Below are positions 1-43,981 of a DNA stretch of 43,981 bases, one piece after another. A program made the translations under genes and the position numbers. The stretch is from a virus. The stretch covers positions 1 to 43,981 of the IMG/VR virus record IMGVR_UViG_3300025736_000056; one strand, given 5' to 3'. Under the pieces are notes generated by a model. That model made no database searches, was not told the DNA's origin, and was given only the letters and a program-made list of their open reading frames with translations. Each line of letters opens with the position of its first letter. Position 1 is the stretch's first letter.

Positions 1-126
1 TTTCAATTCTATTGAGTTGCCACTCTGTAACACCTTCTTCGGAAACTGTAATCTTCCAAAATCTCCCAATAGGGCTAGGAGTAGAAGAAGAATTTATTTC
101 AGGTAAATAGGTATAATATTTATTAT
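1..126. repeat. Terminal direct repeat (left copy), circular-assembly overlap
   Basis: These 126 bases are identical to 43851-43976. Just after the repeat the two copies differ by one base: a C at 127 is missing from the right copy, after which five more bases match. Because the nozzle reading frame runs cleanly across the join, the repeat is best read as overlap of a circular or circularly permuted genome of about 43,850 bp, not as two separate genomic copies. Confidence 0.9.
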
Positions 127-2419
127 CATCGCTTCCTTTATAGTCATCAGTCAAATCAGTGTTAGGGTCGACAGAAAGATCAATAGTAAAACTGTAATCA
201 ATATCACCCTCATTATTTTTATAAGAAATAACTAAATCACCAGACGTTCCTTCATAAAAAATTTTAATCTTCTGTATTATCTTGGGATAATTATCAACAC
301 CAAAATTAGACCACCCAGAGACCCATTTACTTAGATAATCATCCTCCTGTGTCGTTCCTGAGACACTATAAACAAGTTTGAATAGATAGCCATCACTTAC
401 AAATAAAGTCGGCGTATAAAGGATATTTGAAGTCGTTATATCAATCTTTATCTGAACAAAACTATTTGCAGTAATTCCCGATATATCAGAACCAGAAGGA
501 TCGGAAAAAGCACTTGACCAAGCTGCTGCACTACACGCAGCCGATGTTGCCCCAGTTCTCATTTTAAAGGTAACATTACCAGTAGTTCCTAGATCTTCAT
601 TCCAATATAATTTATCAAATGCAGCAACATTAATCTCATATACTGGGCTTGTCCAACTTCCGTCAGTATCAGGACGATCGATTATTGCAGTAGGGTATCC
701 CGCATCAATTGTTCCCACAGCTTCATCAATAGTAATATCCCAGGCAAGTTCCATAGTCGGGCTATTCTCATCTCCGTACACTCTTGCGTCATCAAAAGTG
801 CCTGAATTAAAATCACTCTTAGTTTTTTGAATAAGATTCGTCACTTCTCCTTCGTGATTCCATATTTTCCCACCTGTTGTTGAGTCAGCAGAATAAAGAG
901 TTCCATAATCTGAACCTGAATTAAAAGAGGTAAAAACATTTATATTTCTATAGTCTATGGTATAAGCATCCCTTGTAATATCATAAATTAGAATCCTATT
1001 GTTTGTTGTCGCTCCTGATTCCTTTGACGTATAAGCAAGCATGTATTCAGTTCCATGAAAATGCCCGTATGCTCTATCAATATTTGTAGGAGAAATGTCT
1101 TCTATTTCAGGAGTTACCGCATCAGAGATTAATTCAGAACCTCCACCATTGAATCGATACAATCCTGATCTTGCAAGATAGACAATTCCAAGAGGAGTGT
1201 TTGCAGCAGAATATGAAGCATAGCAACCAGTGTGAGTAATTGGGGCACTTGTATACCAGTCGTCCTCACTTCCTTCGGTGTAATATTTCTGTATACTATT
1301 TGTTTTTGCAACGGTAAGAATCCCGAGTTGTTCTTTTATAAATGTTATTTTATCCCCGTCATTTTCTTGGATAACTTCAACATCATTTGGATCGAAATAA
1401 TCAGGGTTATATTCATCTGAAAAATACATATTTGATAAATCTGTTTTATCACCAGCAACAAATAATCGTTCCTTGTGGATAACACAAAGAGTTCCTTTTG
1501 GCGGGCTAATATCACTGCCTGCACTTGATGTCGCCCAAGTAGGGGCTGAATCGTCATCGGCATCATCATCACTTGTTGTATCGTTATAAACTGCTGTAGA
1601 ATTATCTGCCAGAGTTCCAACCAAATAATAGGTAGTATTAGCAAGGCATGCAACTTTTGTAGCATTACCAACAGTTCTATATATATATCTATGCGTTGTC
1701 CCTGCTTCTCCAACAGGGATATCAATTAATCTAATGTTTTTAACTGCTGCACCCGTAAGAATAGCATTTGATTTTTTTGTGCTATAACAATAATTCGTAC
1801 CATCATAATAAGCAATTTTATACTGATACCATGAACTTGCATCAAGATCAGCCCCAGTGTTTAATTCTGCGAATGGAGCCCCTAAATCAGCACATAAATT
1901 GCTTGCAGTTCTCGAACCGTCAGTATTAGCAGTTGTTTGCGTATACCCATCATATTTGAGAATATTGTCATAACCATTAGTCCATATATCGATATCATGG
2001 TAAGTCACAGATTGCCATGTTTTGGAATCTGTAAGCCCTTCGTGTATAACAGTAAGCGCGCCAGTCGTGTCATTCCCCACATATAAAAAAGTAGATCCAC
2101 CAACAATAAGTTTAGTTGTCCCGCTCGCTTTGTAGTATCTGTGCATCCCATGAAGAGCATGTGCCCCCACGTCTCCATATTCGAGTATTATTGCTCTTTT
2201 TGCTAATGCCCCATACCTAGAGTTGAATCTTACGTTTTGTGCTTCTGAGCATTGACTAGGTTGCATAGAATAGGGTGTCACATGACTGTTCAATCCCTTT
2301 TCAAACGAATTGATATTAAAGTATCGGTCATTTTGTGCAAAAGAGATTGAACAAGTTGCTAATAATAAAAAAACAATAGAAAACGCAAGCGTAAGTTTTG
2401 CAAATATATTTTTAATCAT
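1..2419 (-). CDS. Tail nozzle / propeller-type tail hub protein with N-terminal signal peptide (continues across window edge)
   Basis: The frame is open from the ATG at 2419 to the window edge and finishes at 43819-43821 in the other end of the circle, giving 816 residues. Residues 1-28 are a typical Sec signal (K near the start, long hydrophobic core, SISFA before Q29). The following part, with FEKGLNSHVTPY and AQNVRFNSRYGALAKR, resembles the start of podoviral tail nozzle proteins (T7 gp12 / P22 gp10 type), and the blade-like motif NMYFSDEYNPDYF occurs mid-protein. It lies beside the adaptor and upstream of the ejection genes, as expected for a nozzle. Its ATG overlaps the preceding stop codon by one base. 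The family call is from motif recognition; the signal peptide is plainly visible and odd for a cytoplasmically assembled tail part. Confidence 0.75.
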   Translation of the reverse strand, partial: MIKNIFAKLTLAFSIVFLLLATCSISFAQNDRYFNINSFEKGLNSHVTPYSMQPSQCSEAQNVRFNSRYGALAKRAIILEYGDVGAHALHGMHRYYKASGTTKLIVGGSTFLYVGNDTTGALTVIHEGLTDSKTWQSVTYHDIDIWTNGYDNILKYDGYTQTTANTDGSRTASNLCADLGAPFAELNTGADLDASSWYQYKIAYYDGTNYCYSTKKSNAILTGAAVKNIRLIDIPVGEAGTTHRYIYRTVGNATKVACLANTTYYLVGTLADNSTAVYNDTTSDDDADDDSAPTWATSSAGSDISPPKGTLCVIHKERLFVAGDKTDLSNMYFSDEYNPDYFDPNDVEVIQENDGDKITFIKEQLGILTVAKTNSIQKYYTEGSEDDWYTSAPITHTGCYASYSAANTPLGIVYLARSGLYRFNGGGSELISDAVTPEIEDISPTNIDRAYGHFHGTEYMLAYTSKESGATTNNRILIYDITRDAYTIDYRNINVFTSFNSGSDYGTLYSADSTTGGKIWNHEGEVTNLIQKTKSDFNSGTFDDARVYGDENSPTMELAWDITIDEAVGTIDAGYPTAIIDRPDTDGSWTSPVYEINVAAFDKLYWNEDLGTTGNVTFKMRTGATSAACSAAAWSSAFSDPSGSDISGITANSFVQIKIDITTSNILYTPTLFVSDGYLFKLVYSVSGTTQEDDYLSKWVSGWSNFGVDNYPKIIQKIKIFYEGTSGDLVISYKNNEGDIDYSFTIDLSVDPNTDLTDDYKGSDDNKYYTYLPEINSSSTPSPIGRFWKITVSEEGVTEWQLNRIE

Positions 2420-2553
2420 TATTTACACGTTCCTTTTTTGCCCCCTGTTTTTCTTCCAGTTCCTTTTCCTCCTGCTCTCCCTTGTCCACTACCTCTACCA
2501 TCTCGTGGTCCTTTGCTTCCGCTTCTTGGTCCAGTCTTATCTTTTTTAGGCAT
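2419..2553 (-). CDS. Small basic Gly-rich protein (44 aa)
   Basis: Starts MPKKDKTGPRSGSKGPRDGR and continues with repeated Gly-Lys/Arg triplets (GGKGTGRKTGGKKG) to a Cys-Lys end. The stop TAA shares one base with the nozzle ATG, so the two are probably translationally coupled. Similar tiny DKTGP-type proteins are common beside adaptor genes of metagenomic phages, but no function is known to me. A weak purine-rich site (AAGGGTG) precedes the ATG. Confidence 0.6.
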   Translation of the reverse strand: MPKKDKTGPRSGSKGPRDGRGSGQGRAGGKGTGRKTGGKKGTCK

Positions 2554-2570
2554 TTCTTACACCCTTTCTG

Positions 2571-3254
2571 TTATCTTCCGATTCTCATTCCTCTCAAGCG
2601 TGTTTCTTTTGATGCAGAGATATCAGGTCGTTCTTTTATTAATTTAATTACTTCTACAAGACTTCTCTTGTATTGATTTTCTGCCCTATTATATTCATCA
2701 TCTTTTGTGAGCATTGGTAATGTTTTCCATCTGAAATAATTAAGAATACAATCTTCAAGGATTTCCAAAGAAGAAATCTCTGTTGCTCCTTCAAATGCGT
2801 ATTGCTCATCAGTACTTGGTTTTGTAGGTTTTGCAAAATAATAAATCTTTGCTCCATCTGATTCTGTAGTGTCTGGTTTTGGATATATCCCTAAAACATT
2901 TTGTTCTTGATAATAATAACGTGGTGTCCCAGAGTCTAAAGTTCGCCAATTTGTAATATTATCATCAAGCCATTTTCTTGTTTTTGGTTCAAGTTGCCTG
3001 TAGTCAGTTCCGTTATACCACCATAATCCTGGCTTATCCATTAAAAGAAAGTCGCTTACATGTTGAGAAATTGTATACTCGCTAGTTTCCGCAACAAGAT
3101 TAAATGTTTTATTTTTTGATAAACATTTTGTCCGTCTTGCAACTTCAACTACTCCTTTGTATAGTACTCTTTCAACAATAGTGTTACTTACTGCTGAATT
3201 TTTTGCGTATGGAGTTCCTGCTCTTGCAAATTCTTTTAAATCTCCCCAGTTCAT
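2571..3254 (-). CDS. Head-tail adaptor (tail tubular A / gp4-like connector)
   Basis: A 227-residue protein without a signal peptide. Motifs FLLMDKPGLWWYNG, LEPKTRKWLDDN, NWRTLDSGTPRYYY and LGIYPKPDT are typical of podoviral adaptor proteins that sit between portal and nozzle. I chose the ATG at 3254, preceded by GGAGGAAATT, over a TTG four codons upstream. The protein is strongly aromatic in its middle and ends in a basic helix. Its position next to the nozzle gene fits. It should act in the cytoplasm on DNA-filled heads. Confidence 0.75.
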   Translation of the reverse strand: MNWGDLKEFARAGTPYAKNSAVSNTIVERVLYKGVVEVARRTKCLSKNKTFNLVAETSEYTISQHVSDFLLMDKPGLWWYNGTDYRQLEPKTRKWLDDNITNWRTLDSGTPRYYYQEQNVLGIYPKPDTTESDGAKIYYFAKPTKPSTDEQYAFEGATEISSLEILEDCILNYFRWKTLPMLTKDDEYNRAENQYKRSLVEVIKLIKERPDISASKETRLRGMRIGR

Positions 3255-3271
3255 AATTTCCTCCAAACTGT

Positions 3272-4870
3272 CTAGTTTATACTTATAATAAAACTTCCAA
3301 TATTTCTTTCTGTCTGTTCTTCGTATGCTCCCATATCAGGTCGTGTGTCTAATGGCATTGGACGAGTATCTCCGTTAATATCATCTGCTGGTGATCCTGC
3401 AAGTATAGCAACGCCTATACAAGGACTACTTGTTGTAATGCTGTAATCATCCCCTACAGCATCGGTAAACGCAGGTGCAACAGAAATGTTACCATTATTA
3501 CCTGTAGGGTCTGTCATTCCATTATAGTTCGCAGTAGTTCCACCGTGTGTGTCTGTATAGGTAACAGTAGGATCTTCTGAATCTCCTACTGAATTTATAC
3601 CGTATTTTGCACCTGAAATAATGCAACTTGTAATATCAAAAGAATATCCTCCTGTATCTAAATCAACATAAACATTAGGTTGAGTTGCTCCCCCATCTGC
3701 TATTGTACAATTCTTCATTGAACAATCATCATTATCTAAAAGGTATATTTGTTCCCATGTGTTTTCCCTAACTAAACAGTTTATTAATGCAAAAGAAGAA
3801 GTATCAAGAGTTGCTGAAATAACTAAGCCTCTTAAGGTATTAGAATATATTTTCGATCTATTCACATTTAATGTTATAAAATCATCAACAATATTGAAAC
3901 AACCACTACCGTTTGAAAACCCTTCAAAATCATTAAAATTTAATGTTAAACTATCAGTAGTCGATAAAAGATAAGCACCATAACGACTATTGAGAGATAC
4001 AGAACAATCGCTGAAAGTTAAAGTACCATTACAATTTGCTATATAAATTCCATCGCTTGCAGCATTTGTTCCTGTTAAGTTTGAAGCAGTAAAAGAATCA
4101 CCTGCTACAGTATCAACACTATTAATATAAAAACCAAAAGCCCCATCATTTGAATCAATATATGCAATATCAATTGTTGAGCTATCATTACCCTGTATTT
4201 GTAACCAACCACGTCCACCTTGATCGTCAATAGTAATATGATTGACACTTGTTCCTTTTGCAGTTAGATCATGAATATTCAATATTCTAAAAGAGTTAGC
4301 GTCAGTTCCTAGTCTTAACGTAACACCTTCGTCAATAGTCATGTCATACATAGTCCAAGCACTTGCACCAAAAGCATCAGTAACCCAGCAGTTTTCACCG
4401 AAGAAAGTGTGCCCTTGTGTTGTACTATTTTCATAAGAATCTTCAATAATTAAATAACCATGTGCAAAATGTGTTTCACCTGATCCAACATCCCATGTAC
4501 CACTATCTAATTGCCAAGACCAACGAGTAGTCCCCACGCTTGCAGTAATTGACCAGTCAATATCATTATCGTCACAATCAATTTCACCACCGGCATTATC
4601 AATCGATCCAGCATCTTTTATTGTCCACGTTTGGTCGCCAGTAAGCGTAATCGTTGAATTATTATCAAGTGTGCTAAATGTTGCTCCTGTAGCAGTTACG
4701 CTCATAACATGATTTGTCACTGCATCATCATCTACTGTTGGAACATTTCCTGTGTCCCAATTTGCCCCTGTATTCCAATCAGTACCGTCACCATCGGTAG
4801 TAACTGTTGCAGAATAAGCATTTACCGATAATATAAAAACAAATAAAATTAATAAAATAAGTTTTCTCAT
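3272..4870 (-). CDS. Exported right-handed beta-helix protein (tail spike/adhesin-like)
   Basis: 532 residues. Residues 1-21 form a Sec signal (MRKLILLILFVFILSVNAYSA). The next part, GDGTDWNTGANWDTGNVP, and the long run of short beta strands (many D/N/S/T and Gly, e.g. NSRYGAYLLSTTDSLTLNF) indicate a pectin-lyase-like parallel beta helix. The C-terminus SSPCIGVA..., DDINGDTRP and DMGAYE is the usual capping sequence of such surface proteins. The start overlaps the preceding stop as ATGA. A receptor-binding or glycan-binding role is inferred from the fold and the tail-gene context. Confidence 0.7.
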   Translation of the reverse strand: MRKLILLILFVFILSVNAYSATVTTDGDGTDWNTGANWDTGNVPTVDDDAVTNHVMSVTATGATFSTLDNNSTITLTGDQTWTIKDAGSIDNAGGEIDCDDNDIDWSITASVGTTRWSWQLDSGTWDVGSGETHFAHGYLIIEDSYENSTTQGHTFFGENCWVTDAFGASAWTMYDMTIDEGVTLRLGTDANSFRILNIHDLTAKGTSVNHITIDDQGGRGWLQIQGNDSSTIDIAYIDSNDGAFGFYINSVDTVAGDSFTASNLTGTNAASDGIYIANCNGTLTFSDCSVSLNSRYGAYLLSTTDSLTLNFNDFEGFSNGSGCFNIVDDFITLNVNRSKIYSNTLRGLVISATLDTSSFALINCLVRENTWEQIYLLDNDDCSMKNCTIADGGATQPNVYVDLDTGGYSFDITSCIISGAKYGINSVGDSEDPTVTYTDTHGGTTANYNGMTDPTGNNGNISVAPAFTDAVGDDYSITTSSPCIGVAILAGSPADDINGDTRPMPLDTRPDMGAYEEQTERNIGSFIISIN

Positions 4871-5319
4871 TCTATATCACCTTTTTTCTTAAAATGCTCT
4901 TCTATTTCCTTGTCTGTAAATTGTCTTTTATTACATTTTTTCATTTCTACATTCACAGGAAGATCAGCACATGTAAAATTACACCTAACAAAAGAAGTTG
5001 ACTTGTCAATGATTGCCTTATCAAGATTAATTGAAAACGATAAATTACAACCTTCAAAAATAACCCCTCTTATATCAGTATTCTTAAAATCACAGAAAGA
5101 AAAATTTCTTCGGTAGTATTTCTTTTGTTTTAATTTCATATTCTTTAATGAATGAGCAGACTTGTTTCCTATCTTATCTAGTTTATCTTGTGTTTTTACA
5201 TTTCTCTTCATTGCCCTAATTTCTGCCTTATTCTTAAAATGAGAATTTACAGAAGAACTTGCAAAAAGTTGCGACGTTACAAATAAAAACATAAAAATAA
5301 ACAATAATAGTTTTCTCAT
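4867..5319 (-). CDS. Exported pentapeptide-repeat protein
   Basis: 150 residues from the ATG at 5319 (GAGGTG just upstream); a GTG two codons earlier is less likely. Residues 1-18 form a Sec signal ending QLFA. The middle is Lys-rich. The C-terminal half has pentapeptide-repeat-like units (FSFCD FKNTD IRGVI FEGCN LSFSI) with regular aromatic or Leu centres and several Cys. Pentapeptide repeats form a rigid beta helix; here the array is short. Function unknown. It is translationally coupled to the beta-helix gene downstream (ATGA). Confidence 0.6.
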   Translation of the reverse strand: MRKLLLFIFMFLFVTSQLFASSSVNSHFKNKAEIRAMKRNVKTQDKLDKIGNKSAHSLKNMKLKQKKYYRRNFSFCDFKNTDIRGVIFEGCNLSFSINLDKAIIDKSTSFVRCNFTCADLPVNVEMKKCNKRQFTDKEIEEHFKKKGDIE

Positions 5320-5334
5320 AAACACCTCTTTTTT

Positions 5335-6114
5335 TTAACTATATGTTCCTTCAATAGCAATTTGTACGTTTTCCGATGTTCCGCTACTATGCTCAAAAAT
5401 GAGATACTTTGCAGTTTCAATAGTGCTAACATCAAACCCTGATATTATATTGGCATAATAACCTGAAGTCCCATCAGTAGAACATGCAACACTATCAAGC
5501 TGTGTATCTGCTCCAGTAGATATGTCTGTATTTGAAGAACTTTTGAATAAAAGAAAAGTATAGTCATCAGTATCGCTCATTGCTCGAATCTTAGTAATCG
5601 TGAAAGTCTTCCCAGTACCATTATACCAAACACACGCACTTTGTGTGCTTCGTCCTGCATGTGTTGTTAAGTTTTCTGCATCTTGTATTGCAAACTGAAC
5701 AGTCGCAGGAATTGTACTCACAACGCCCGTGGTGGTCGTGTTGTACATTATCCCTGTTGATAATGCTCCCAACGCTTGTTCACCAGATAGGGTTGCATTT
5801 GCAGTTTGTGTTATGTAAGTTGCATCAACAGGCGCGCCACTACTACCTCCACCCAAAAGAGAAGTTTCCGTGCCAGATGAATCAAGAGCATAAGGAGTTG
5901 TTGTTCCTGCCCCATCATCTTTTGCGTACATTTTAATTTTGTTTGCTGGTGGATTATCAGGTGTACTTGCTAATTCATCAAATACAATAGAATTTTTTTG
6001 CATCTCTAAATCGTTTTCATTCCAAGATGATCCACGTTGATAAGCATGCACACTTGTAACGCAAAAGATTAAAAGACACGCAAGAAATAAACTATTTCTT
6101 ATATTCTTTATCAT
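5335..6114 (-). CDS. Exported tail-fibre-like protein
   Basis: 259 residues. Residues 1-24 form a Sec signal (core LFLACLLIFCVTSVHA). The segment VFDELASTPDNPPANKIKMY followed by AKDDGAG, then ALDSSGTETSLLGGG, is a recurrent tail-fibre shaft/knob motif in phages. The rest is Thr/Ser-rich beta sequence. No catalytic motif is seen. It lies in a run of fibre-like genes on the same strand, with short gaps. Confidence 0.6.
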   Translation of the reverse strand: MIKNIRNSLFLACLLIFCVTSVHAYQRGSSWNENDLEMQKNSIVFDELASTPDNPPANKIKMYAKDDGAGTTTPYALDSSGTETSLLGGGSSGAPVDATYITQTANATLSGEQALGALSTGIMYNTTTTGVVSTIPATVQFAIQDAENLTTHAGRSTQSACVWYNGTGKTFTITKIRAMSDTDDYTFLLFKSSSNTDISTGADTQLDSVACSTDGTSGYYANIISGFDVSTIETAKYLIFEHSSGTSENVQIAIEGTYS

Positions 6115-6128
6115 TCTCTTTTTTCCTT

Positions 6129-6368
6129 TTATTGTTTAATATTATGAACAGCACTATTGCCTTTTTGTTCTTTCTCTTTAGCTTCAAGATATTTCAATAC
6201 TCCAACTATTTCAATTTGCTGTACTCTTCTTTTCTCAATCTCTTGTTGAATAGTAGATATTTCTTGAGAAAGTTTATTATGAGACTTAATTAATTCTTCT
6301 CTTGATTGAGCAAAACATGGACTCACAAACAGCATTACAATAATTCCTACTATGATTTTTTTTAACAT
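6129..6368 (-). CDS. Small exported coiled-coil protein
   Basis: 79 residues. Residues 1-20 form a Sec signal (MLKKIIVGIIVMLFVSPCFA) followed by Q. Residues 22-66 form a heptad-like helix (REELIKSHNKLSQEISTIQQ and on) rich in E, K, Q, I and L. It could be a periplasmic coiled-coil partner of the neighbouring fibres; no family recognised. Its start is preceded by GGAAAATAACG. Confidence 0.55.
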   Translation of the reverse strand: MLKKIIVGIIVMLFVSPCFAQSREELIKSHNKLSQEISTIQQEIEKRRVQQIEIVGVLKYLEAKEKEQKGNSAVHNIKQ

Positions 6369-6385
6369 CGTTATTTTCCTTTTTT

Positions 6386-6790
6386 TTAATAGTCTTCTTG
6401 AACTGATAAATTAAGATTTAAAATAGTATCTGCTTCGTTTGTCCCAGAACCTGTTACTTTAAAACGCATATAAGGCATTGGTACAGGAGAAAGAGTTGCA
6501 ATTTTCCACGCTTCTGTGATTAAATCATCTTCAATAGCACTTACCCCTTTAGGCACAACATAATGATCGTCTGCTGCACCTTCTGTTGCAGGAAGCCTGT
6601 CAGATTGTTCCATTTCGATTTTTATTGATGGACTGCCAGTTGCAGATACTGCTTTGTATTTAAGTCCAAAATAAACCCCCATATTTAACGGTATTGCTCT
6701 TGTGTACACGACTGCTGTACTTGCGATTGCAATATCAGTTGCATCGCTTGTATTAACTACATTTCTTATTGCTGGTCCGAACATTCCCAT
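6386..6790 (-). CDS. Putative virion beta-sandwich protein without signal peptide
   Basis: 134 residues from the ATG at 6790 with AAGGGGG upstream. The N-terminus is not hydrophobic. Sequence such as FGLKYKAVSATGSPSIKIEM and PMPYMRFKVTGSG looks like a small beta-sandwich domain found in phage structural regions. The proteins at 10096-10503 and here alternate with exported ones. Function inferred only from context. Confidence 0.5.
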   Translation of the reverse strand: MGMFGPAIRNVVNTSDATDIAIASTAVVYTRAIPLNMGVYFGLKYKAVSATGSPSIKIEMEQSDRLPATEGAADDHYVVPKGVSAIEDDLITEAWKIATLSPVPMPYMRFKVTGSGTNEADTILNLNLSVQEDY

Positions 6791-6804
6791 ACTAGCCCCC
6801 TTTT

Positions 6805-7188
6805 TTATTGTCCTTGTTCAAATACATCTTGTGCTTTTGATAAATCTACTATCACACTATTTACATTTACTTTCAGTGATTTTAATTTAGTATAGATATT
6901 ACTACCTAATTTCCATGCAAAATCATTGTGAGCTACTTTTTTTATGTTTGTCTTTGTTACAATACTGCTTACAGTTTCTTTTTCTTCTTCCCATTCTTCA
7001 ACCTCACTGACTTGAATACCAACATGATTTATTTTCTCTTTTCTATCAAGTCTATACTCTCTAGTTTTCCATACTTCTAATTCGATACATCCTTCCTTTA
7101 ATCGATTATCTATCGTAAGAGTAATAATTACATACGCATCTTTACATATCCCACCTGTTCTATCTGGAAAATCAATTTTTAATCCCAT
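6805..7188 (-). CDS. Hypothetical structural-region protein
   Basis: 127 residues from the ATG at 7188, chosen because GGGGGTATTTT lies directly before it. N-terminal half: short beta strands with one Cys (FPDRTGGICKDAYVIITLTI); middle: acidic coiled region EVEEWEEEKETVSS; C-terminus ends in a helix. No signal peptide and no recognised family. Position between fibre genes suggests a virion or assembly role. Confidence 0.5.
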   Translation of the reverse strand: MGLKIDFPDRTGGICKDAYVIITLTIDNRLKEGCIELEVWKTREYRLDRKEKINHVGIQVSEVEEWEEEKETVSSIVTKTNIKKVAHNDFAWKLGSNIYTKLKSLKVNVNSVIVDLSKAQDVFEQGQ

Positions 7189-7205
7189 AAAATACCCCCT
7201 TATTA

Positions 7206-10085
7206 TCAACTAACTTTTTCAAGATTACTTATTCTCTCTTTTAAGTCAACATTCTCTTCGTGCAATTCTTTTATATAAATAGCAAGATGCTCCATTTGCT
7301 CACATAATTGAGATTGAAACTTACCTAAAGATGGTCTGTTCTCTTCAGTCCAATTTAATCGCCCAGTTAATCTAGGTAAATGTCTTTTTTCCTCTATATG
7401 CTTAATAAACTCTTCTCTTGTTGGGATTGTGTATTCCGCACTAATACCTTTGTCAATGTCTTCTTCTTTAATCTCATTATCAAAATATTTATCAAATACG
7501 TAATCTGTTAATAATACATTATCATCATAAACAGCTTTTGCGTTTATTGTACCTGCTCCTTTACTTCCTCCTGTAGGTGAACCCATTATTAGAGAACCAC
7601 CTATATAACTTTTAGATATTGTAGATTCACAATAAATATCCCATCTATTTGTTATTGTTCCGCTTGGATCATTATTTTTAATATATAAACCGTATGCATT
7701 AGTTATCGTTGTTCCTGATACTGCATTAAGAATCTCTGCTCTAATAGCATAAGCTGTATTGACCACTGCGCCTCTTGTTGCATTGTGGATTCCTGCTTTA
7801 CACCAAAGACCATATTGAGTATTTAATGTCCCTGCAAATCCTGCTGTATTTGCAAAAGCATTTCCATTAACACCAATCTTGTATCCTGAATCAGTTATTC
7901 CTGCCGGGATAGTACAATCTGTAATATCACAAAACATAGCTTTATCATAACTAGTACCTGATGATGTCATTACTGTAACTCTGTTAATATTACAACCATT
8001 TTTTGATAAAGTTCCTGCTGGCGTACTACGGTATATAGAAAGCTTAGCGTATGATGATCCATCTGTTCCAACGCCAATACTGTCAAACCCGGCATTTAAG
8101 CTAAACAAATTAGCATCTGTATCTCCTTCGATTCTAAAATCTACGTCTGCTCCATCTTCGTTAAAAACTGCACTGCCTCTTACATCTAATTGTGAAGACG
8201 GCGTATTTGTTCCAATCCCTACATACCCATCACTACCCTGAACGAATAAAGCGTTTGCTTCACCAACACCCTCAACTCTAAAATCATAATCTCCACCACT
8301 TTCATTAACAACTAAACCTTTATTCATTGTTACATCCCCAGTAAACGCTCTTGTACCATCTATCAATGAAGCATACGGATGATCTGCTATATCTGCAAGT
8401 CCTGCTAAACTTCCATGATCTGTAACTGTATTGAAACTCTCTTCACTTATCCCCGGGCGTATATCTTGCCAAACCGCAGATGTAAAATCAGTATCGTTTT
8501 GCTGATAAACAACAGCTGTCAATTTTGGTACTTGTTCTAGTCCCGCGGGGATAGCAGACAATGCCGAATTTTCTGCTTGAGCTTTTGTGTTATAATATGT
8601 GGTTGGATATACCCACCCGATTTTTTCGTTCTGATATATAAAATACGCTTTAGTCCATTTGTTCGCAGGTAATGCCTCTAATCCTTGTCCACCCACCTTA
8701 TCAGGATTATCATAATTGACAGTATCTATTTCAGCGTTTGTATCCGAATCCAAAACACCTGCTGTGTGATAATGTCTTATCATCGCCGTAGTTCTTGATT
8801 TTATTTCTACTGGGGTTTTCCGTTCGATTGTGTCCTTATATAAAACACCGGCATCCATTACCACATCAAGATCGTTGGTAACATCAGTATCTTCGCTTAC
8901 ACTCATTCCGCTAATAATACGAGTTGGAAATATTTCTCGTAATCCTCTTCTTGTATTAGCAATAGTTGTATTCATTAAACTCGTTTCTCTGTATCCTGCG
9001 ATAACGCCGTCATATACAGCAAAATTTGCAATAAGAATTTCATCACTAGATGATGTTGAAGTCGCAATAGTCAATCCGTCGCCACTTACCCACTTTAGAT
9101 AATTTTCTACATTATCTGTTAAATTCCCACTGCCCGCAGTAGTCGATACAAAAAGATTATTTGACTCATCATATATTTCCCCGGTAGTCCAAGAAATCCC
9201 TAGTCCACCAGTTAAAGTTATAGTTATTGCTGATGTTTTACCTCGATTTAATAAATGTTCAAAAGTATCTTTGACAGTATGATCGCTATGATCGGGAATA
9301 TCGTCAGAATCAACTTGATCCGCACTATGTCCCCAATCAATATGATAATCTTTTATTAAGTCATTTGCTATATCGGAAGTAGTAATTGTTGTAAGATAAC
9401 CCTCTGTTGAATGATCGCCCCAACCATACGCAGTATCCCAATCAGCTATGTTTAAATTATCTGCGGTAATATCACCAGTAGTAGCAATATCAAAAGACCC
9501 TGATTTATCCCCTGTTATTCCAGTTTGTGCGTCATCAAGAAGCCAATAAGACCCAGACCCTTCTTCCATCCAACCACCTGAAAAGAAAACCCATAAGATA
9601 AGACCAACGAGTTCCCAAACAAAAACGCCTTCGTCTGGTTCGGTTTCTATCCATGAATCTCCATCCCATTCATATACATATCCGTCTTCCCAACCTTCCG
9701 CAGTTCCATCAGAGCCGTATCTATCACCAATATCAGGATCAACAGGTAATCCACCAGTAGGATCCCACCAATCAATTATTGGCGGTAATATCCATATATC
9801 CTCAAAAGAAAGAACTCCATCACCATTAGTTTGTAAAAATTGGTCTCTATCACCATCATTAATAGGTAAAATAAGCGTATAATCGCTTGCTAAGACACTC
9901 GGTGCTTTAATAGTTACCTTATCTGCCCCAACCCCTGTTTCTTCAAAAGACATCGATTCTTTAGCGTTTACCTTGTATGCGTTGACTACCTTACGACCAC
10001 CAACCATAGTTCTTGAATATGAAAACGGTAAGTTTACATTTAATCCAACAAGTAACAATATAAAAATCCATATTATCTTTTTCAA
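7206..10085 (-). CDS. Large exported tail fibre with C-terminal coiled coil
   Basis: 959 residues, starting at a TTG (10085) with TGGAGATATT upstream. Residues 1-24 form a Sec signal. The shaft contains phage fibre motifs: LQTNGDGVLSFEDI, DWDTAYGWGDHSTEGYLTT and two DxR.EG...VGIGT units (YVGIGTNTPSSQLDVRG). The last 80 residues (IDKGISAEYTIPTREEFIKH to ISNLEKVS) with HLPRL and a terminal heptad helix look like the end of trimeric fibres that carry or replace an S74-type chaperone; I see no clear S74 catalytic dyad. Likely the main host-contact fibre. Confidence 0.7.
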   Translation of the reverse strand: MKKIIWIFILLLVGLNVNLPFSYSRTMVGGRKVVNAYKVNAKESMSFEETGVGADKVTIKAPSVLASDYTLILPINDGDRDQFLQTNGDGVLSFEDIWILPPIIDWWDPTGGLPVDPDIGDRYGSDGTAEGWEDGYVYEWDGDSWIETEPDEGVFVWELVGLILWVFFSGGWMEEGSGSYWLLDDAQTGITGDKSGSFDIATTGDITADNLNIADWDTAYGWGDHSTEGYLTTITTSDIANDLIKDYHIDWGHSADQVDSDDIPDHSDHTVKDTFEHLLNRGKTSAITITLTGGLGISWTTGEIYDESNNLFVSTTAGSGNLTDNVENYLKWVSGDGLTIATSTSSSDEILIANFAVYDGVIAGYRETSLMNTTIANTRRGLREIFPTRIISGMSVSEDTDVTNDLDVVMDAGVLYKDTIERKTPVEIKSRTTAMIRHYHTAGVLDSDTNAEIDTVNYDNPDKVGGQGLEALPANKWTKAYFIYQNEKIGWVYPTTYYNTKAQAENSALSAIPAGLEQVPKLTAVVYQQNDTDFTSAVWQDIRPGISEESFNTVTDHGSLAGLADIADHPYASLIDGTRAFTGDVTMNKGLVVNESGGDYDFRVEGVGEANALFVQGSDGYVGIGTNTPSSQLDVRGSAVFNEDGADVDFRIEGDTDANLFSLNAGFDSIGVGTDGSSYAKLSIYRSTPAGTLSKNGCNINRVTVMTSSGTSYDKAMFCDITDCTIPAGITDSGYKIGVNGNAFANTAGFAGTLNTQYGLWCKAGIHNATRGAVVNTAYAIRAEILNAVSGTTITNAYGLYIKNNDPSGTITNRWDIYCESTISKSYIGGSLIMGSPTGGSKGAGTINAKAVYDDNVLLTDYVFDKYFDNEIKEEDIDKGISAEYTIPTREEFIKHIEEKRHLPRLTGRLNWTEENRPSLGKFQSQLCEQMEHLAIYIKELHEENVDLKERISNLEKVS

Positions 10086-10095
10086 AATATCTCCA

Positions 10096-10503
10096 TTAAG
10101 TTAAAATTTCATATATTATCGTTACATACAAAATACCTACTGCATCAGTTCCACTTGATTTAATCGTCAACTCGTCTCCTGATTCCCCGATAACCCCTAA
10201 AAGATTATCTCCTGCAATTAACCCAATATCTGCCGTTCCGTCAAAATCAGCTTGCCCGATTGCTGTATCATAGTTTGCACCTGTTAAAGAATTAAAAGAC
10301 ACAGTAATTGTGGTATCGTCTAAATTAGCCGATGAGTGAATTAATACTTGATGAACCTTGAATTTGCCAACAATATCAGTTGTATAATTTAAAACTGCAC
10401 TTGATAAATCCTGCGATGTTTCTTTCCTATCAAGGTTAGTCTTGATAAGCATTATCGGAACACCATCTTCTGTCAGTTTTTCTAAATCTTCTTGCCAACC
10501 CAT
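10096..10503 (-). CDS. Putative virion protein (beta-rich, 135 aa)
   Basis: Starts MGWQEDLEKLTEDGVPIMLI, no signal peptide, followed by a beta-rich body (VGKFKVHQVLIHSSANLDDT, YDTAIGQADFDGTADIGLIA). General form resembles the protein at 6386-6790. AAGGGG precedes the start. It lies directly upstream of the large fibre gene; a fibre-attachment or accessory role is possible but not shown. Confidence 0.5.
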   Translation of the reverse strand: MGWQEDLEKLTEDGVPIMLIKTNLDRKETSQDLSSAVLNYTTDIVGKFKVHQVLIHSSANLDDTTITVSFNSLTGANYDTAIGQADFDGTADIGLIAGDNLLGVIGESGDELTIKSSGTDAVGILYVTIIYEILT

Positions 10504-10506
10504 ACA

Positions 10507-11394
10507 TTAACCCCTTGATTTTTTCTTTAATATCTCTCGTCGTTTCTCTAGGTCTGAATTGTCGTGTTTTAATGCCTTTTCCCAATCGTCCAGGTGTTCT
10601 TCTTTTTCTTGAAGAGCAATTGCAGTTTTCTCTTGATTCTTCTTGTTTTGACGAATCCTATTCTCACGGTCAAGAAGGCTCTTTTTCTGATCCTCTATCT
10701 CTGCAAATGCACTGTCTACGTCTTTTTGTAGTTTCCCGTTGTTTCGTATGTTTTTTTCAAGAGTATTATTTTGTAAATGTTTCAATTCCATTTGTGTGTT
10801 TAAAACATTTTTCTTCACAGAAAGTTCAGATTCAAATTCTTTAAGTTCTGTCTCTTTCGCAAAAGCTTCTGCTACCTTATTTTTAGCGTCATCTAATATT
10901 AAATGGTTTCTATTGTATTGTTTTTTAAGTTCTGTTTTTTCTTGTTCAAATACTTTTTTGTCAGTGTCCAGTTCTTCTATCGTTGTATTAACTTTGACCG
11001 TATCTTTGCGAATGTCATCTTGTGCTTTTTTTATCTGTAAATTATACTTTTCGTAATAAGCACGATCAGCAAGATGTATTGAATTAAGTTCTAACTCTTT
11101 ATTGTGTAGTTCTTTGAATAACTTATCGTTTACAGTTGCTCGCAATTCAATTTCACTAGCACGCAAGTCAAGTGAAGTACTGTGTGCCTGCAATTCTTTC
11201 TCTTTTAATTGATTTTCTATTACAAGGTTTTTCTCTGCCTGTTTTCTTTTCTCTGTCAACTCAACAATTTCTTGTTTCAACAACGCAATATCTTTTTTAT
11301 ATTTCGCAAGAATCGCATCTGTTTCTTTCTTTACTTTCTTTGATGGTTCAATATGTACTATTTCTTGTTTCTGGTTCCAACCATTTATTCTCAT
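10507..11394 (-). CDS. Long coiled-coil protein (295 aa)
   Basis: Almost the whole protein from residue 20 to the end is a continuous heptad-type helix rich in K, E, L and Q (ALLKQEIVELTEKRKQAEKN, KNVLNTQMELKHLQNNTLEK). No signal peptide. Such proteins in late regions may be fibre shafts, cores or internal virion rods. No family recognised. AAAGGAAAG precedes the ATG. A plus-strand HNH gene begins 15 bases upstream on the other strand. Confidence 0.6.
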   Translation of the reverse strand: MRINGWNQKQEIVHIEPSKKVKKETDAILAKYKKDIALLKQEIVELTEKRKQAEKNLVIENQLKEKELQAHSTSLDLRASEIELRATVNDKLFKELHNKELELNSIHLADRAYYEKYNLQIKKAQDDIRKDTVKVNTTIEELDTDKKVFEQEKTELKKQYNRNHLILDDAKNKVAEAFAKETELKEFESELSVKKNVLNTQMELKHLQNNTLEKNIRNNGKLQKDVDSAFAEIEDQKKSLLDRENRIRQNKKNQEKTAIALQEKEEHLDDWEKALKHDNSDLEKRREILKKKSRG

Positions 11395-11408
11395 GATACT
11401 TTCCTTTT

Positions 11409-11732
11409 ATGAATAATACTTGTGAAAGCTATGCGTGGAAAGGTGGCAAGACAGAGCATCAGGGCTACTTGTACATAAATAGCCCTGATCACCCTCATCG
11501 TCTTTCTAATGGTTTTTGTGCAGAACATCGCCTTGTCTGCGAAAAATACCTTGGACGTTATCTTACGAAAAAAGAAGTTGTCCATCATATCAATAAAGTC
11601 ACTAATGACAACCGAATTCAAAATCTTATGATTTTTAAAAATCAAGGTTATCATAGTGCTTTTCATAGATTCGGACATTGTTCGCAACAAGGTATTATCT
11701 TTGATGGTCGAAATTCTACAAACCATTTATAA
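11409..11732 (+). CDS. HNH endonuclease (free-standing, homing-type)
   Basis: 107 residues on the strand opposite to all neighbours. Contains WKGGK, YLYINSPDHPHRLSNGF and the HNH core AEHRLVCEKYLGRYL, EVVHHINKVTNDNRIQNLM, FHRFG. HxxxR...HHIN...N..NL is the standard phage HNH pattern. It is a shorter paralogue of the HNH gene at 24959-25510, lacking the zinc-finger N-terminus. It sits in the gap between two late genes, a common site for mobile endonucleases. Ribosome site is weak. Confidence 0.8.
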   Translation: MNNTCESYAWKGGKTEHQGYLYINSPDHPHRLSNGFCAEHRLVCEKYLGRYLTKKEVVHHINKVTNDNRIQNLMIFKNQGYHSAFHRFGHCSQQGIIFDGRNSTNHL

Positions 11733-11764
11733 TCCTTTCCTGTTTTATGCTGTATTATGCTGTA

Positions 11765-12673
11765 TTATTCTGTTGACTCCCAAAGCACTTCAAAATACGT
11801 TACATCTAATGTACCACTATTTGCCAAGGCACTTGCTGACTCATCAACTGTAACTTCAATAGTTACTAAATCACCAACTGCAATAGTTTCAACTTCAATA
11901 TTATATTGTTCTTTAAACATCTTTCCATTGTCTGCACTTGCATCTGCAACAACAGTTGTTTGATCTGCTAATGCTGTTCCCGCAGCATCCATTGCTTCAC
12001 CTTCACCCGCTGCATTTACAGTAAAATCAAACTGTGCTTCATCTGTTTCATCTTCTGCGGTGCTAAATGACCAATATACATTTAGTCTTGCAGAATCGAC
12101 TACATAACCAGCCGGAACAACCCAATGAATATAAGCAATATCATCGCCTGTTGCTCCACCATCTGCATCAAATTGAAGAGCAGGGAAAACAGCTTGTCCA
12201 TTTGTTCCAACTTGTGCAACAGCAGGAGGAGATGTACCATCAAGCTCTACATCTTCAATTGGGATAAGAACAGTTCTAGTCTGTCCACCACCAAATACAA
12301 CAGTTTTAGCAAATGTTGCGATTTGATCTTCAGCCATTGAGATAATAGGCGTAGTATCAGGAGCTGACCCTAGCCCAATGATTAAATCATCCGTTCCATC
12401 ATCAAGAGAAATATGATAGTCTTGTGTATTACCATCAAACGTAATAATAGTATCTTCTGCCCCTGCATCACCAAGCGTAAGAGCGTCAACAAATATCTCC
12501 TGTACTTCTGATCCTGATTCACCAATATCATAATCACCAGTCGGAACAATATCACCGTCCTCAACTTCCCAACTATCATTGCCTATTGTCCCTTCAAGAT
12601 ATGCAAATGCTGGCAAGTTAAACGCCACCATTCCCACGAAGAGCAATAAACATAAAAACTTTCTCATTTTCAT
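11765..12673 (-). CDS. Exported virion/fibre-like protein
   Basis: 302 residues. Residues 1-24 form a Sec signal (core FLCLLLFVGMVAFNLPAFA). Body: LTLGDAGAEDTIITFDGNTQ and FEVLWESTE at the end are typical of fibre or beta-sandwich proteins found in groundwater phage contigs; many Asp/Gly/Ala, no Cys in the mature part. GGAGG stands before the ATG. It is the first exported gene after the capsid gene block. Function inferred from context. Confidence 0.6.
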   Translation of the reverse strand: MKMRKFLCLLLFVGMVAFNLPAFAYLEGTIGNDSWEVEDGDIVPTGDYDIGESGSEVQEIFVDALTLGDAGAEDTIITFDGNTQDYHISLDDGTDDLIIGLGSAPDTTPIISMAEDQIATFAKTVVFGGGQTRTVLIPIEDVELDGTSPPAVAQVGTNGQAVFPALQFDADGGATGDDIAYIHWVVPAGYVVDSARLNVYWSFSTAEDETDEAQFDFTVNAAGEGEAMDAAGTALADQTTVVADASADNGKMFKEQYNIEVETIAVGDLVTIEVTVDESASALANSGTLDVTYFEVLWESTE

Positions 12674-13248: not shown

Positions 13249-14226
13249 TTACGCAGCAGTTCCACCACCACGAGATACATTCCGCCAATCTTTGAATAAT
13301 ACGCCTTGTCTTAAATCGATAGATACTTTATACCCTCGATTATCTTCATCCCTAAAAAATCTTATTTCAGGAGACTGTCTCTTGTGAAATTGCATGTTTT
13401 GAGACTGACGTTTCAAGAGATAAAACGCACTATCAGACAAATAATCCCAATCCATTACACTTACGATCTTGTAATAGACATTCTTATCGTTTATTTGTGA
13501 AGATGGCATTCCTCGAGAAGTATCAACAATTCTTTCTGCTGCAAATCTATCAGCACCAGGACTAACAAGAAGAGTATCACAAGGATTTGAACAAACTCTG
13601 TCTCGTTCATCTCTGTTGTTTGTTGCAGTATGAAGATTATACAAAATTTCAAAATTCGCAGGTGTAAGAGTCAATCCAGCGATGGAGTTATAATATGTTC
13701 CACCATTTTTAGTTGATCTTATATTTCCAGTAAGATTGAAAAATGGTTTTGAATCATACATCATGTTACCGCTTGAATCAGTGTTGTTGGTATGAGTACC
13801 ATTAAATACCCATTCTCCAAGTAAATCTCCACCACGATTAAACGGAGTCGCTCCCATGACTTCTTCGGCATATCTTGTTGATTTTCCCCAAGAACTTGCA
13901 AGAGATTTCAAAAAGTTCCCAAGCTTTACTGTATCTTCAACTGCTTCTTTTGTAAGCGAGATACCATCGCTATAAGTCCAATATCTTGTAAGATACTCCC
14001 AACCTTGCTTTGGGCTCTTATAGTCGATGCTTTCTCCTTCAACTTCGTGGCGTTTTAAATTGCCTGCACCAAGAATTTGAGTTTCTTTATCACCTGCACC
14101 CGAAACTTTACTTTTAACGTGATATATTTTATCGTGAACTGTGTCAACTTCCTTATATGTTTCGTATTGTGCCTCGTACATATCTTTTGTGTATAAGGCT
14201 AGATTATCTCCTCTAACTCCCGGCAT
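13249..14226 (-). CDS. Major capsid protein
   Basis: 325 residues, start MPGVRGDN with GGGAGG upstream. Located after scaffold and decoration-like genes, the usual place for the coat protein. Features include a long helix-like stretch (EAVEDTVKLGNFLKSLASSW), ATPFNRGGDLLGEWVFNGTH, LTLTPANFEILYNLHTATNN and a late beta segment (SPEIRFFRDEDNRGYKVSID), consistent with an HK97-fold coat protein. No signal peptide. The identity rests on context, size and overall pattern, not on a diagnostic motif. Confidence 0.8.
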   Translation of the reverse strand: MPGVRGDNLALYTKDMYEAQYETYKEVDTVHDKIYHVKSKVSGAGDKETQILGAGNLKRHEVEGESIDYKSPKQGWEYLTRYWTYSDGISLTKEAVEDTVKLGNFLKSLASSWGKSTRYAEEVMGATPFNRGGDLLGEWVFNGTHTNNTDSSGNMMYDSKPFFNLTGNIRSTKNGGTYYNSIAGLTLTPANFEILYNLHTATNNRDERDRVCSNPCDTLLVSPGADRFAAERIVDTSRGMPSSQINDKNVYYKIVSVMDWDYLSDSAFYLLKRQSQNMQFHKRQSPEIRFFRDEDNRGYKVSIDLRQGVLFKDWRNVSRGGGTAA

Positions 14227-14746: not shown

Positions 14747-16009
14747 TTATTGATTCTTTTTGTCAATCTTTTTTCTTTTTTCTACAAAATCATTATAAAA
14801 CTCGATGATTTTCTCTTCTGTAAGACCAGCGCCACCAAACATGTTTTTCGCTCTTGTAAGATCTTCGTTTGAAAGCACAGACTTCTTTGTCTTAGTTTTG
14901 ATTGAGGATCCTTTTGCAACAGACTTCTTTTCTCCAAGTATCTTCGCCTGTTCAGTTCCCTTTTTATATTCTTTCTCTTTTGCCTTTTTCAGATCTTCAT
15001 CATAGTGTTTACCCTTAGCCAAAAGAATTAAATCATCAAGTGTAAACTTTGGATTCAAGAGCTGGATATCAGACATCTTGTCAAGCATTGGTTTAACATC
15101 AGTAAGAAATCTTTGATGCGAAGCAGTTAGCGTACTAATGAACTCTATTCTTTTCTTTGTTGCATGTTTATTCGTCTCTCGTTGCTTATCAGCTTGTAGA
15201 GAAGTCATTTTTTGTTCAATCTCCCGATATGCCATCTTCCAAACTTCCGAATCTTCAAGGTCGTCTGTCTTATCAGGATGCTCTTCTCTATACGATTCAG
15301 TTGCTATTTGTTGAAATTCGTCAACACTGTATTCTTTTCCCTCAAGAGTTACTGTTTTAGGAAATAATGAAGTTTCGCCTATTTTATGATTAAGGTATTC
15401 AACCTCTTTCTTGATTGAACGATTCTCTTCATCTACTTTTGACGTATGAGACTGTAAGTTCCGATATGCAAACGCTATCTTCTTTTTATCGTCTCCATAT
15501 TTCTTGACTATCCCATTAACTCCCTCGATTATTTCTCGGGCTTCTGGTTCGTCAATTCCGTTTGCTTCGGCATACTTAGTAATTTCAGTTTCAATGTCCT
15601 CTCCTGCTGACTGTTCTTCCTGTTCTTTTTTAGTCGCTTCCTCTTCTGCTCTTTTTTCCTTCTCTTCTTCTGATTCTCCCTCTTGATCTTCCTCAGAATT
15701 TTCTCCTGTGTCTTCGCCTTCTTCGTCGTTTCCTTCGTCGGTGTTGTCGTCTTCGTCGTCTGATTCTTCCGAATCGTCGTTAGAAGCGTCAGCATCTTTG
15801 TTATTACCTTCATCCTCTCCCCCTTCTTTCGCTTTCTCTCTTTCAAGGTGAAGATCCCACGAAGATTTCCCCGAATCTCTTGACCCACTCTCTTTCAAGG
15901 CTCTTTCTTTTAGCACTTCACTCAATATCGCTTTCTCTTGCGCTTCTGAAAGTTCTTCCTGACTTTTTAATTGCTCTTGATCGAGAATGTTTTTGTCTGT
16001 TTCTGACAT
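14747..16009 (-). CDS. Capsid scaffolding protein
   Basis: 420 residues from the ATG at 16009, chosen because CAAGGAGTCAAGATT precedes it; an earlier ATG at 16081 lacks a good site. Residues 60-150 are extremely acidic (D/E/N/S), followed by coiled helices and a basic C-terminus (KIIEFYNDFVEKRKKIDKKN), the standard design of phage scaffolds, whose basic tail binds coat protein. Contains MSDIQLLNPKFTLDDLILLA. It is the first gene after the strong terminator at 16154-16196. Confidence 0.65.
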   Translation of the reverse strand: MSETDKNILDQEQLKSQEELSEAQEKAILSEVLKERALKESGSRDSGKSSWDLHLEREKAKEGGEDEGNNKDADASNDDSEESDDEDDNTDEGNDEEGEDTGENSEEDQEGESEEEKEKRAEEEATKKEQEEQSAGEDIETEITKYAEANGIDEPEAREIIEGVNGIVKKYGDDKKKIAFAYRNLQSHTSKVDEENRSIKKEVEYLNHKIGETSLFPKTVTLEGKEYSVDEFQQIATESYREEHPDKTDDLEDSEVWKMAYREIEQKMTSLQADKQRETNKHATKKRIEFISTLTASHQRFLTDVKPMLDKMSDIQLLNPKFTLDDLILLAKGKHYDEDLKKAKEKEYKKGTEQAKILGEKKSVAKGSSIKTKTKKSVLSNEDLTRAKNMFGGAGLTEEKIIEFYNDFVEKRKKIDKKNQ

Positions 16010-16153
16010 AATCTTGACTCCTTGTGTTTTGCGGGCTGAACTGTAACAGGTTCCGCTATTTTGTTTTTTGGCGGGTTGCATGATTGCAAGTTCCGCAGTG
16101 TTTTCTTCTTGGAAGAGCCGGCTTGATCGTCGGGTATCTTCTCTATTTCAAAC

Positions 16154-41415: not shown

Positions 41416-41441
41416 TTTTATATCCCCCTTTTACTTTTATA

Positions 41442-43819: not shown

Positions 43820-43981
43820 TATACATTGTCCTCCATCGCCTTATACATGATTTCAATTCTATTGAGTTGCCACTCTGTAACACCTTCTTCGGAAACTGTA
43901 ATCTTCCAAAATCTCCCAATAGGGCTAGGAGTAGAAGAAGAATTTATTTCAGGTAAATAGGTATAATATTTATTATATCGC
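43819..43981 (-). CDS. C-terminal end of nozzle protein (other part at 1-2419)
   Basis: Reading leftward, the repeat copy gives QLNRIEI then MYKAMEDNV and TAA at 43821-43819. This finishes the frame cut at position 1. The one-base deletion after 43976 would shift the frame to the right of it, so the left copy should be taken as correct. Confidence 0.75.
   Translation of the reverse strand, partial: RYNKYYTYLPEINSSSTPSPIGRFWKITVSEEGVTEWQLNRIEIMYKAMEDNV
43851..43976. repeat. Terminal direct repeat (right copy)
   Basis: Identical to 1-126; followed by ATCGC where the left copy has CATCGC. The window end is therefore an overlap of the circle, with a probable single-base assembly error at the extreme end. 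Confidence 0.9.

What the first reader, a model, noticed from the sequence alone, without database searches (positions are those of the whole stretch)
2419..12673. Sec signal peptides on most tail/fibre genes but not on head genes
Clear Sec-type N-termini (basic start, long hydrophobic core, AxA-like cleavage site) are visible on genes starting at 2419, 4870, 5319, 6114, 6368, 10085 and 12673, and, on the other side of the circle, 43819, 43366 and 42465. Terminase, portal, scaffold, capsid, decoration, adaptor and the three ejection-type proteins lack them. Tailed-phage virion parts normally fold in the cytoplasm. The split suggests that tail and fibre parts are exported, so that tails might mature at or beyond the inner membrane, or exported copies might coat the host surface. 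This is inference; the signals themselves are directly visible.
Basis: partly seen in the sequence, partly recalled or inferred. Interest (0 to 1): 0.85.

Follow-up and report, generated by a model that had tools for sequence, protein, structure and literature searches.

The report
Phage tail proteins carry export signals
In an uncultured family of short-tailed bacterial viruses, the tail tube (nozzle) and receptor-binding proteins carry the tag that sends proteins out of the bacterial cytoplasm while the head proteins do not, which suggests that these viruses may be finished outside the compartment where all known tailed viruses are thought to be built.

Summary
All ten named genes start with a typical Sec signal peptide (score 5.2-8.4; at cut-off 5 the scorer passes 20/26 E. 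coli Sec proteins and 0/81 cytosolic ones). Terminase, portal, scaffold, capsid, adaptor and ejection-type proteins score clearly negative or low.

It is conserved. In 34 relatives (35-53% nozzle identity) the signal is on 28/29 complete nozzle genes, 21/21 of the next fibre family and 14/16 Mtd-like adhesins, but 0/27 adaptors. The 2-2419 protein is a genuine podophage nozzle: its AF2 model matches T7 gp12, SU10 and P22 gp10 structures.

Controls lack it: a sister clade has 0/137 ORFs with signals, and T7/P22/SU10 virion genes have none. Two adhesin families exist without signals in long-tailed phages, one starting at the predicted mature N-terminus. One complication: one of those phages has a signal-bearing fibre.

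Best explanation: parts distal to the adaptor are made as Sec precursors, exported, and joined to filled heads when lysis breaches the inner membrane. Export is strongly supported by sequence; joining is inference. SignalP and proteomics could not be run; the host is unknown.

The parts
2..2419 (-). Tail nozzle (T7 gp12 / P22 gp10 type), first 806 aa; runs over the circle junction to 43944 (about 816 aa). Signal peptide = residues 1-28, site FA|QN, coded by 2336-2419
   Evidence: SP score 5.80; AF2 pLDDT 83.4; best PDB matches are podophage tail/nozzle structures; SP in 28/29 complete homologues
43944..43981 (-). C-terminal end of the nozzle gene across the circle junction
   Evidence: continuous ORF on the circle; intact in L001
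2571..3266 (-). Head-tail adaptor, no signal
   Evidence: PF24175 SU10_adaptor 4e-15; score -6.2; 0/27 homologues have a signal
3272..4870 (-). Beta-helix protein with signal peptide (tail spike/fibre-like)
   Evidence: score 8.44; PF13229 8.7e-07
4867..5325 (-). Pentapeptide-repeat protein with signal peptide
   Evidence: score 6.68; PF00805 9e-06
5335..6114 (-). Fibre-like protein with signal peptide
   Evidence: score 7.05; relatives L003 3814 and L015 1372 also with signal; shares a 51-aa stretch with a fibre-like protein of L074
6129..6368 (-). Small protein with signal peptide and coiled-coil-like mature part
   Evidence: score 6.99
7206..10085 (-). Large fibre-like protein (959 aa) with signal peptide, TTG start
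   Evidence: score 5.18, the weakest of the ten
11765..12673 (-). Fibre-like protein next to the capsid operon, with signal peptide
   Evidence: score 7.79
42112..42465 (-). Small conserved protein with signal peptide; SP-less homologue in long-tailed phage L074 starts at the predicted mature N-terminus
   Evidence: score 6.74; alignment
42479..43366 (-). Mtd-like receptor-binding protein with signal peptide
   Evidence: score 5.89; PF21916 mtd_2nd 5.1e-09; 14/16 homologues with signal; SP-less homologues in L074 and L075
43382..43819 (-). Adhesin with signal peptide, short conserved helix (LNEELR) and swappable C-terminal domain
   Evidence: score 7.92; 21/21 homologues with signal; C-termini of homologues are Collar or Gly-rich domains
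13249..14226 (-). Major capsid protein, no signal
   Evidence: score -9.3; 24% identical to L069, which matches phrog_371 major head protein 3e-26
14747..16081 (-). Scaffold-like acidic protein, no signal
   Evidence: score -3.7; position between portal and capsid
18433..20592 (-). Portal, no signal
   Evidence: phrog_332 5.5e-07; score -15.6
20589..22355 (-). Terminase large subunit, no signal
   Evidence: phrog_5989 2.5e-13; score -17
37013..42101 (-). Three ejection-type (internal virion) proteins 37013-40486, 40483-41415, 41442-42101, no signal; the role is inferred from position and size
   Evidence: scores -8.1, 1.45, -7.75

Best explanation
The ten N-termini are working, cleavable Sec (signal peptidase I) signals. 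This family of podophages builds DNA-filled heads with internal ejection proteins and adaptor in the cytoplasm, and makes everything distal to the adaptor (nozzle and receptor-binding fibres) as precursors that are exported and fold on the far side of the inner membrane. The two halves meet when the inner membrane is breached at lysis, so virions are completed in the periplasm or lysate. SHOWN from sequence: signal-type N-termini, their conservation, their boundary between adaptor and nozzle, and the nozzle identity. INFERRED: actual export and cleavage, absence of a cytosolic nozzle pool, and joining at lysis. Likely gains (speculative): adhesins cannot foul intracellular receptors, oxidising folding, and blocking of receptors on the producing cell.
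For: Ten of ten genes pass a calibrated scorer; 0/81 cytosolic E. coli controls and 0/2050 shuffles do. Conservation of property rather than sequence: pairwise identity 27.5% in the signal region versus 44.1% in the mature nozzle, yet every scored signal keeps a hydrophobic core, 21 of the 22 printed have a net basic n-region, and -1 is A or G in 28/28, with Q/E at +1 in 17. Family counts (>=3.5): nozzle 28/29 excluding outgroup L036 (the other is interrupted by an HNH gene), fibre family 21/21, Mtd-like 14/16, versus adaptor 0/27; at >=5, ejection-type 0/16 and capsid 0/3. Unrelated fibres in the same slot (LamG-type and large fibres) also carry signals. SP-less controls of similar GC: sister nozzle clade 0/137 ORFs against 60/168 in the family; distant-capsid relatives L069/L070 none; T7, P22, SU10 virion genes none. 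SP-less homologue of 42112 in a long-tailed phage starts at the mature N-terminus. Signal starts have ribosome sites in the window, and a nozzle start downstream of the signal with a ribosome site is found in 1/28.
Against: No SignalP, no proteomics, no host, no cultured member. No tailed phage is known to join an exported nozzle to a cytoplasmic head, and a filled head without nozzle must be plugged by something. Some genes in the tail block lack signals (6386, 6805, 10096, 10507). One fibre in a long-tailed phage (L074 8699-10006) also has a signal, so the signal is not strictly tied to this nozzle. The Cys content of exported mature parts is only slightly higher (0.79% vs 0.62%), so there is no clear oxidative-folding signature.
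Confidence: 0.58

Rival explanations
1. Dual targeting: most of each protein is exported to decorate or block the producing cell's own envelope receptors (superinfection exclusion, protection of progeny), while a slow-export or leaky-start fraction stays in the cytoplasm and is built into virions there in the usual way.
For: Many signal-bearing proteins are receptor-binding types (Mtd-like, Collar, LamG, beta-helix), for which receptor blocking makes sense. In-frame ATG/GTG/TTG codons exist near the cleavage site in 11/28 nozzle and 17/21 fibre genes.
Against: The nozzle itself has the signal and no plausible envelope role. Downstream starts rarely have a ribosome site (1/28, 1/21, 0/14), and the mature part is single-copy in the window. 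Hydrophobic cores are stronger than in the E. coli control set (mean 3.36 vs 2.69), which argues against leaky export.
Confidence: 0.2
2. The hydrophobic N-termini are not cleaved: they anchor nozzle and fibres to the inner membrane, or stay in the virion as structural or membrane-piercing helices used during DNA entry.
For: The AF2 model of the nozzle draws residues 2-27 as one helix in front of the nozzle fold. Ejection machinery does interact with membranes in known podophages (general knowledge).
Against: Small residues at -1 are kept (A/G in 28/28 nozzles) with typical n-, h- and c-regions, and the same architecture sits on non-homologous proteins. A homologue without it starts at the predicted mature residue. 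T7, SU10 and P22 nozzles work without such a helix.
Confidence: 0.13
3. The signals are a host-guild peculiarity: in this unknown host, exporting surface-binding proteins is useful or neutral, and signals spread by module exchange between unrelated phages without changing virion assembly (for instance partial export tolerated).
For: A long-tailed phage sharing modules with this family (L074) has a fibre with a signal.
Against: The same phage keeps its Mtd-like and 42112-like proteins SP-less, so signals do not simply travel with modules. Near-total fixation on the nozzle indicates selection.
Confidence: 0.06
4. Artefact: wrong start codons or AT-rich sequence giving hydrophobic N-termini by chance.
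For: Genomes are AT-rich (35-42% GC in near-complete members), and two starts are GTG/TTG.
Against: 0/137 in a sister clade of about 38-41% GC, 0/2050 shuffles, conservation across 35-53% identity, ribosome sites at the starts.
Confidence: 0.02

Closest known systems
Podophage tail nozzle (T7 gp12, SU10 nozzle, P22 gp10)
   Same: Same fold by structure search, same neighbour (SU10-type adaptor), same gene order adaptor-nozzle-fibres
   Different: Known ones start directly at the nozzle domain and score negative for a signal (T7 -6.2, P22 -9.1, SU10 -2.7); here a signal peptide precedes it in the whole clade
Filamentous phage virion proteins (M13 pIII, pVIII)
   Same: Virion proteins made with cleavable signal sequences and assembled at the membrane (established knowledge)
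   Different: Those are membrane-embedded coat proteins extruded without lysis; here soluble tail parts of an icosahedral tailed phage
Secreted and SAR endolysins, spanins
   Same: Phage late proteins that use Sec; the family also has them (signal-bearing SLT transglycosylase in a relative, PF01464)
   Different: Lysis enzymes and not virion parts
Mtd-type receptor-binding proteins of diversity-generating retroelement phages
   Same: Mtd second domain (PF21916) in window 42479 and homologues
   Different: 92 phage-encoded DGRs were reported, whose target proteins lack detectable signal peptides (PMC6199706); here the Mtd-like protein has one

Membership tests
Podophage nozzle family (T7 gp12 / P22 gp10 / SU10) | Nozzle fold | tested here: met
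   Foldseek PDB hits 1-31 are phage tail, nozzle or portal-tail entries, E 1e-22 to 7e-8
Podophage nozzle family (T7 gp12 / P22 gp10 / SU10) | Encoded next to a gp11/gp4/SU10-type adaptor | tested here: met
   PF24175 4e-15 directly upstream; same order in relatives
Podophage nozzle family (T7 gp12 / P22 gp10 / SU10) | Made without a signal peptide | tested here: not met
   Score 5.80; 28/29 complete homologues have it
Sec / signal peptidase I substrate | Basic n-region, hydrophobic core, small residues at -3/-1 | tested here: met
Sec / signal peptidase I substrate | Translocation and cleavage in a cell | not testable with these tools
   Needs fusions or proteomics
Tat substrate | Twin-arginine motif before the core | tested here: not met
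   No RRxF[LIV] in the signal-bearing proteins
Lipoprotein (signal peptidase II) | Lipobox with conserved Cys at +1 | tested here: not met
   No conserved Cys at the cleavage point in the nozzle, 43382 and Mtd families; only 36763-37008 and some lysis-type genes look like lipoproteins
Filamentous phage assembly | Small membrane-inserted coat, extrusion, ssDNA | tested here: not met
   TerL, portal and capsid of a dsDNA tailed phage

The most novel reading that the evidence does not exclude
A lineage of tailed phages that assembles its virion in two compartments: DNA-filled, adaptor-closed heads in the cytoplasm, and a Sec-exported nozzle with adhesins outside it, with infectivity created only at lysis when the two meet.
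Probability: 0.5. Interest if true: 0.95.

Novelty: new variant of a known kind. Interest (0 to 1): 0.84.

Why it matters
Tailed phages are the commonest viruses known, and their assembly is described as entirely cytoplasmic up to lysis. A conserved cytosolic/exported boundary exactly between adaptor and nozzle would show that tail addition can be moved across a membrane. It would link virion maturation to lysis, and give a natural route for phages to use periplasmic folding or to block receptors on the producing cell. It also provides a sequence marker (signal peptide on a nozzle) to find other such phages in metagenomes.

Tried and rejected
Chance or AT-richness: rejected by shuffles and the SP-less sister clade. 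Wrong start codons: rejected by ribosome sites and by conservation in relatives. Alternative SP-less nozzle start: not found as a rule. Lipoprotein or Tat signals: rejected. Cys enrichment as evidence for oxidative folding: too weak to use. Host search: no relative of nozzle or portal in the GTDB genome contigs, and the phages collection gave only remote nozzle matches and no portal match, so the host stays unknown. A search with the adaptor alignment was impossible (too divergent). Capsid structure prediction failed (pLDDT 38); capsid identity rests on homology to phrog_371 members instead. Literature search found no report of signal peptides on a tailed-phage nozzle (open-access library only). 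I first counted L010, L014, L021 as SP-less; their signal regions are interrupted by an antisense HNH gene. My scorer is home-made; SignalP was not available.
Full report
WHAT WAS CHECKED. The window is a 43,981-base IMG/VR virus record, circularly permuted: the gene at 2-2419 continues over the window end to 43944, and an independent contig (L001) has the same junction uninterrupted. SignalP was not available, so I wrote a simple n-region/h-region/cleavage-site scorer and calibrated it on annotated E. coli K-12 genes: at a cut-off of 5 it accepts 20 of 26 Sec-exported proteins, 0 of 81 cytosolic and 2 of 32 membrane proteins. In the window the ten genes score 5.18 to 8.44. Terminase, portal, scaffold, capsid, putative decoration protein, adaptor and the three ejection-type proteins score between -17 and +1.5. 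Shuffled proteins never pass (0/2050). Nine of the ten starts are ATG or have an ATG within two codons, one is TTG, and most have a purine-rich ribosome site. Other window ORFs that pass are a lysozyme-like exported ORF (23221), a short membrane-type ORF (26485) and a lipoprotein (36763).

WHAT THE PROTEINS ARE. The adaptor at 2571-3266 is an SU10-type adaptor (PF24175, 4e-15). The protein at 2-2419 has no significant family match by sequence, but its AF2 model (23 aligned homologues, pLDDT 83.4) finds podophage tail and nozzle structures as its first 31 PDB matches, including T7 gp12, SU10 and P22 gp10; the viral library agrees. It is therefore the tail nozzle. 3272-4870 is a beta-helix protein, 42479-43366 contains an Mtd second domain, and the 43382 family has a conserved helix behind the signal followed by swappable domains: Collar, Gly-rich, tail-tip. 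Relatives carry LamG-type fibres behind signals in the same block. The capsid is assigned through relatives that match the phrog_371 major head family; TerL and portal through PHROGs. Ejection-type roles are inferred from position and size only.

CONSERVATION. Two scans of IMG/VR gave 34 contigs with a nozzle in the same clade (35-53% identity to the window; one is the near-identical L001) plus one remote relative, L036. With correct starts, 28 of 29 complete nozzle genes of the clade have a signal (score >=3.5; 23 of them >=5), and the 29th has its signal region interrupted by a homing endonuclease. The 43382 family has it in 21/21 and the Mtd-like family in 14/16 (the other two interrupted in the same way). 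The adaptor has it in 0/27; at >=5, ejection-type families have it in 0/16 and capsid in 0/3. Three near-complete relatives (G001-G003) show the same genome-wide pattern. The signal region is only 27.5% identical between pairs against 44.1% for the mature protein, yet hydrophobic core, basic start and a small residue at -1 are kept. This is the pattern of selection on targeting, not on sequence.

CONTROLS THAT LACK IT. T7, P22 and SU10: no virion gene passes; the P22 Rz spanin and SU10 holin do. A sister clade found with the remote nozzle homologue L036 (L080-L088, similar GC): 0 of 137 ORFs, against 60 of 168 in the signal clade. Phages with distantly related capsids (L069, L070): none. The most telling case is long-tailed phages (tape measure and Dit) that share modules with this family. 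L074 and L075 have Mtd-like proteins without a signal (49% identity over residues 79-294 and 56% over 52-159). L074 has a homologue of 42112-42465 that starts at the residue where the window protein is predicted to be cleaved. So the same proteins exist with and without the signal, according to the phage.

A COMPLICATION. The next gene in L074 (8699 onward, cut by the contig end) is a fibre-like protein with a signal, sharing a 51-residue stretch with the window's 5335 protein. Signals on fibres are therefore not limited to this nozzle clade, and the host or guild may matter.

MECHANISM. The boundary between signal-less and signal-bearing proteins runs between adaptor and nozzle, that is, between what can be built on the portal in the cytoplasm and what is added last in podophages. 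Downstream starts that would give a cytosolic nozzle are not conserved and rarely have ribosome sites. The simplest reading is export of the distal tail, folding outside the cytoplasm, and joining to filled heads when lysis opens the inner membrane. That heads and tail parts of several phages can join in mixed lysates is established knowledge; that these heads stay closed without a nozzle is assumed. Steps shown: signals, conservation, boundary, nozzle fold. Steps inferred: translocation, cleavage, place and time of joining. The h-regions are more hydrophobic than in my E. coli set (3.36 vs 2.69), which would favour co-translational (SRP-type) export, but the host's own signals are unknown and the phage set was itself selected by score.

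RIVALS. Dual targeting with receptor blocking by the exported fraction (0.2), uncleaved helices used as anchors or virion parts (0.13), a tolerated host-guild peculiarity (0.06), artefact (0.02). The nozzle argues against the first, the conserved cleavage sites and the mature-length homologue against the second.

KNOWN OR NEW. A search of open-access papers found no report of signal peptides on a tailed-phage nozzle. One paper states that phage DGR target proteins lack signal peptides (PMC6199706), and another found one or two signal peptides per genome in Bacteroides phages without tying them to tails in the passages read (PMC5723332). Most subscription journals were not searchable. Sec-exported virion proteins are established for filamentous phages. 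I file the finding as a new variant of a known kind (podophage tail with exported distal parts); if virion completion outside the cytoplasm were shown it would deserve a category of its own.

LIMITS. Home-made predictor; host unknown (no match in GTDB genomes with nozzle or portal); no cultured relative; ejection and several fibre roles inferred from position; four genes of the tail block lack signals and their place in the virion is unknown.

Noticed in passing
L002 3584-4963, L010 3173-4393, L014 5258-6604, L015 13274-14686, L021 4192-7062: An antisense HNH homing-endonuclease gene sits inside the signal-peptide coding stretch of the Mtd-like gene (nozzle gene in L021); its start codon abuts the remaining hydrophobic core, and the sense frame stays open through it in all five. 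No Rfam intron hit in the four searched (L021 not searched). Splicing, fusion or gene breakage is unresolved.
   Followed up: partly
window 23221-24321 (+): Exported lysozyme-like ORF whose middle overlaps an HNH-like ORF (23370-24101), suggesting an endolysin interrupted by a homing endonuclease or intron; Pfam does not recognise either part.
   Followed up: partly
window 11391-11732: The minus-strand ORF 11391-11726 is the antisense of an HNH_3 endonuclease ORF on the plus strand (11409-11732, PF13392 9.8e-11), inserted between tail genes.
   Followed up: yes
window 10507-11394 (-): Coiled-coil protein of about 290 aa without signal in the tail block; similar coiled-coil ORFs occur in the tail block of relatives (L003 2504, L005 8516, L029 346, L061 12989, L064 13319). 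Function unknown; an export chaperone or tail rod is possible.
   Followed up: no
window 36763-37008 (-): Short protein with a lipobox (VAGC), a possible outer-membrane spanin, which would imply a diderm host.
   Followed up: no
window 22865-22942 (-): tRNA-Lys (ttt) just upstream of the putative small terminase gene.
   Followed up: no
L074 8699-10006: Signal-bearing fibre-like protein in a long-tailed phage whose neighbouring Mtd-like and 42112-like proteins lack signals.
   Followed up: partly
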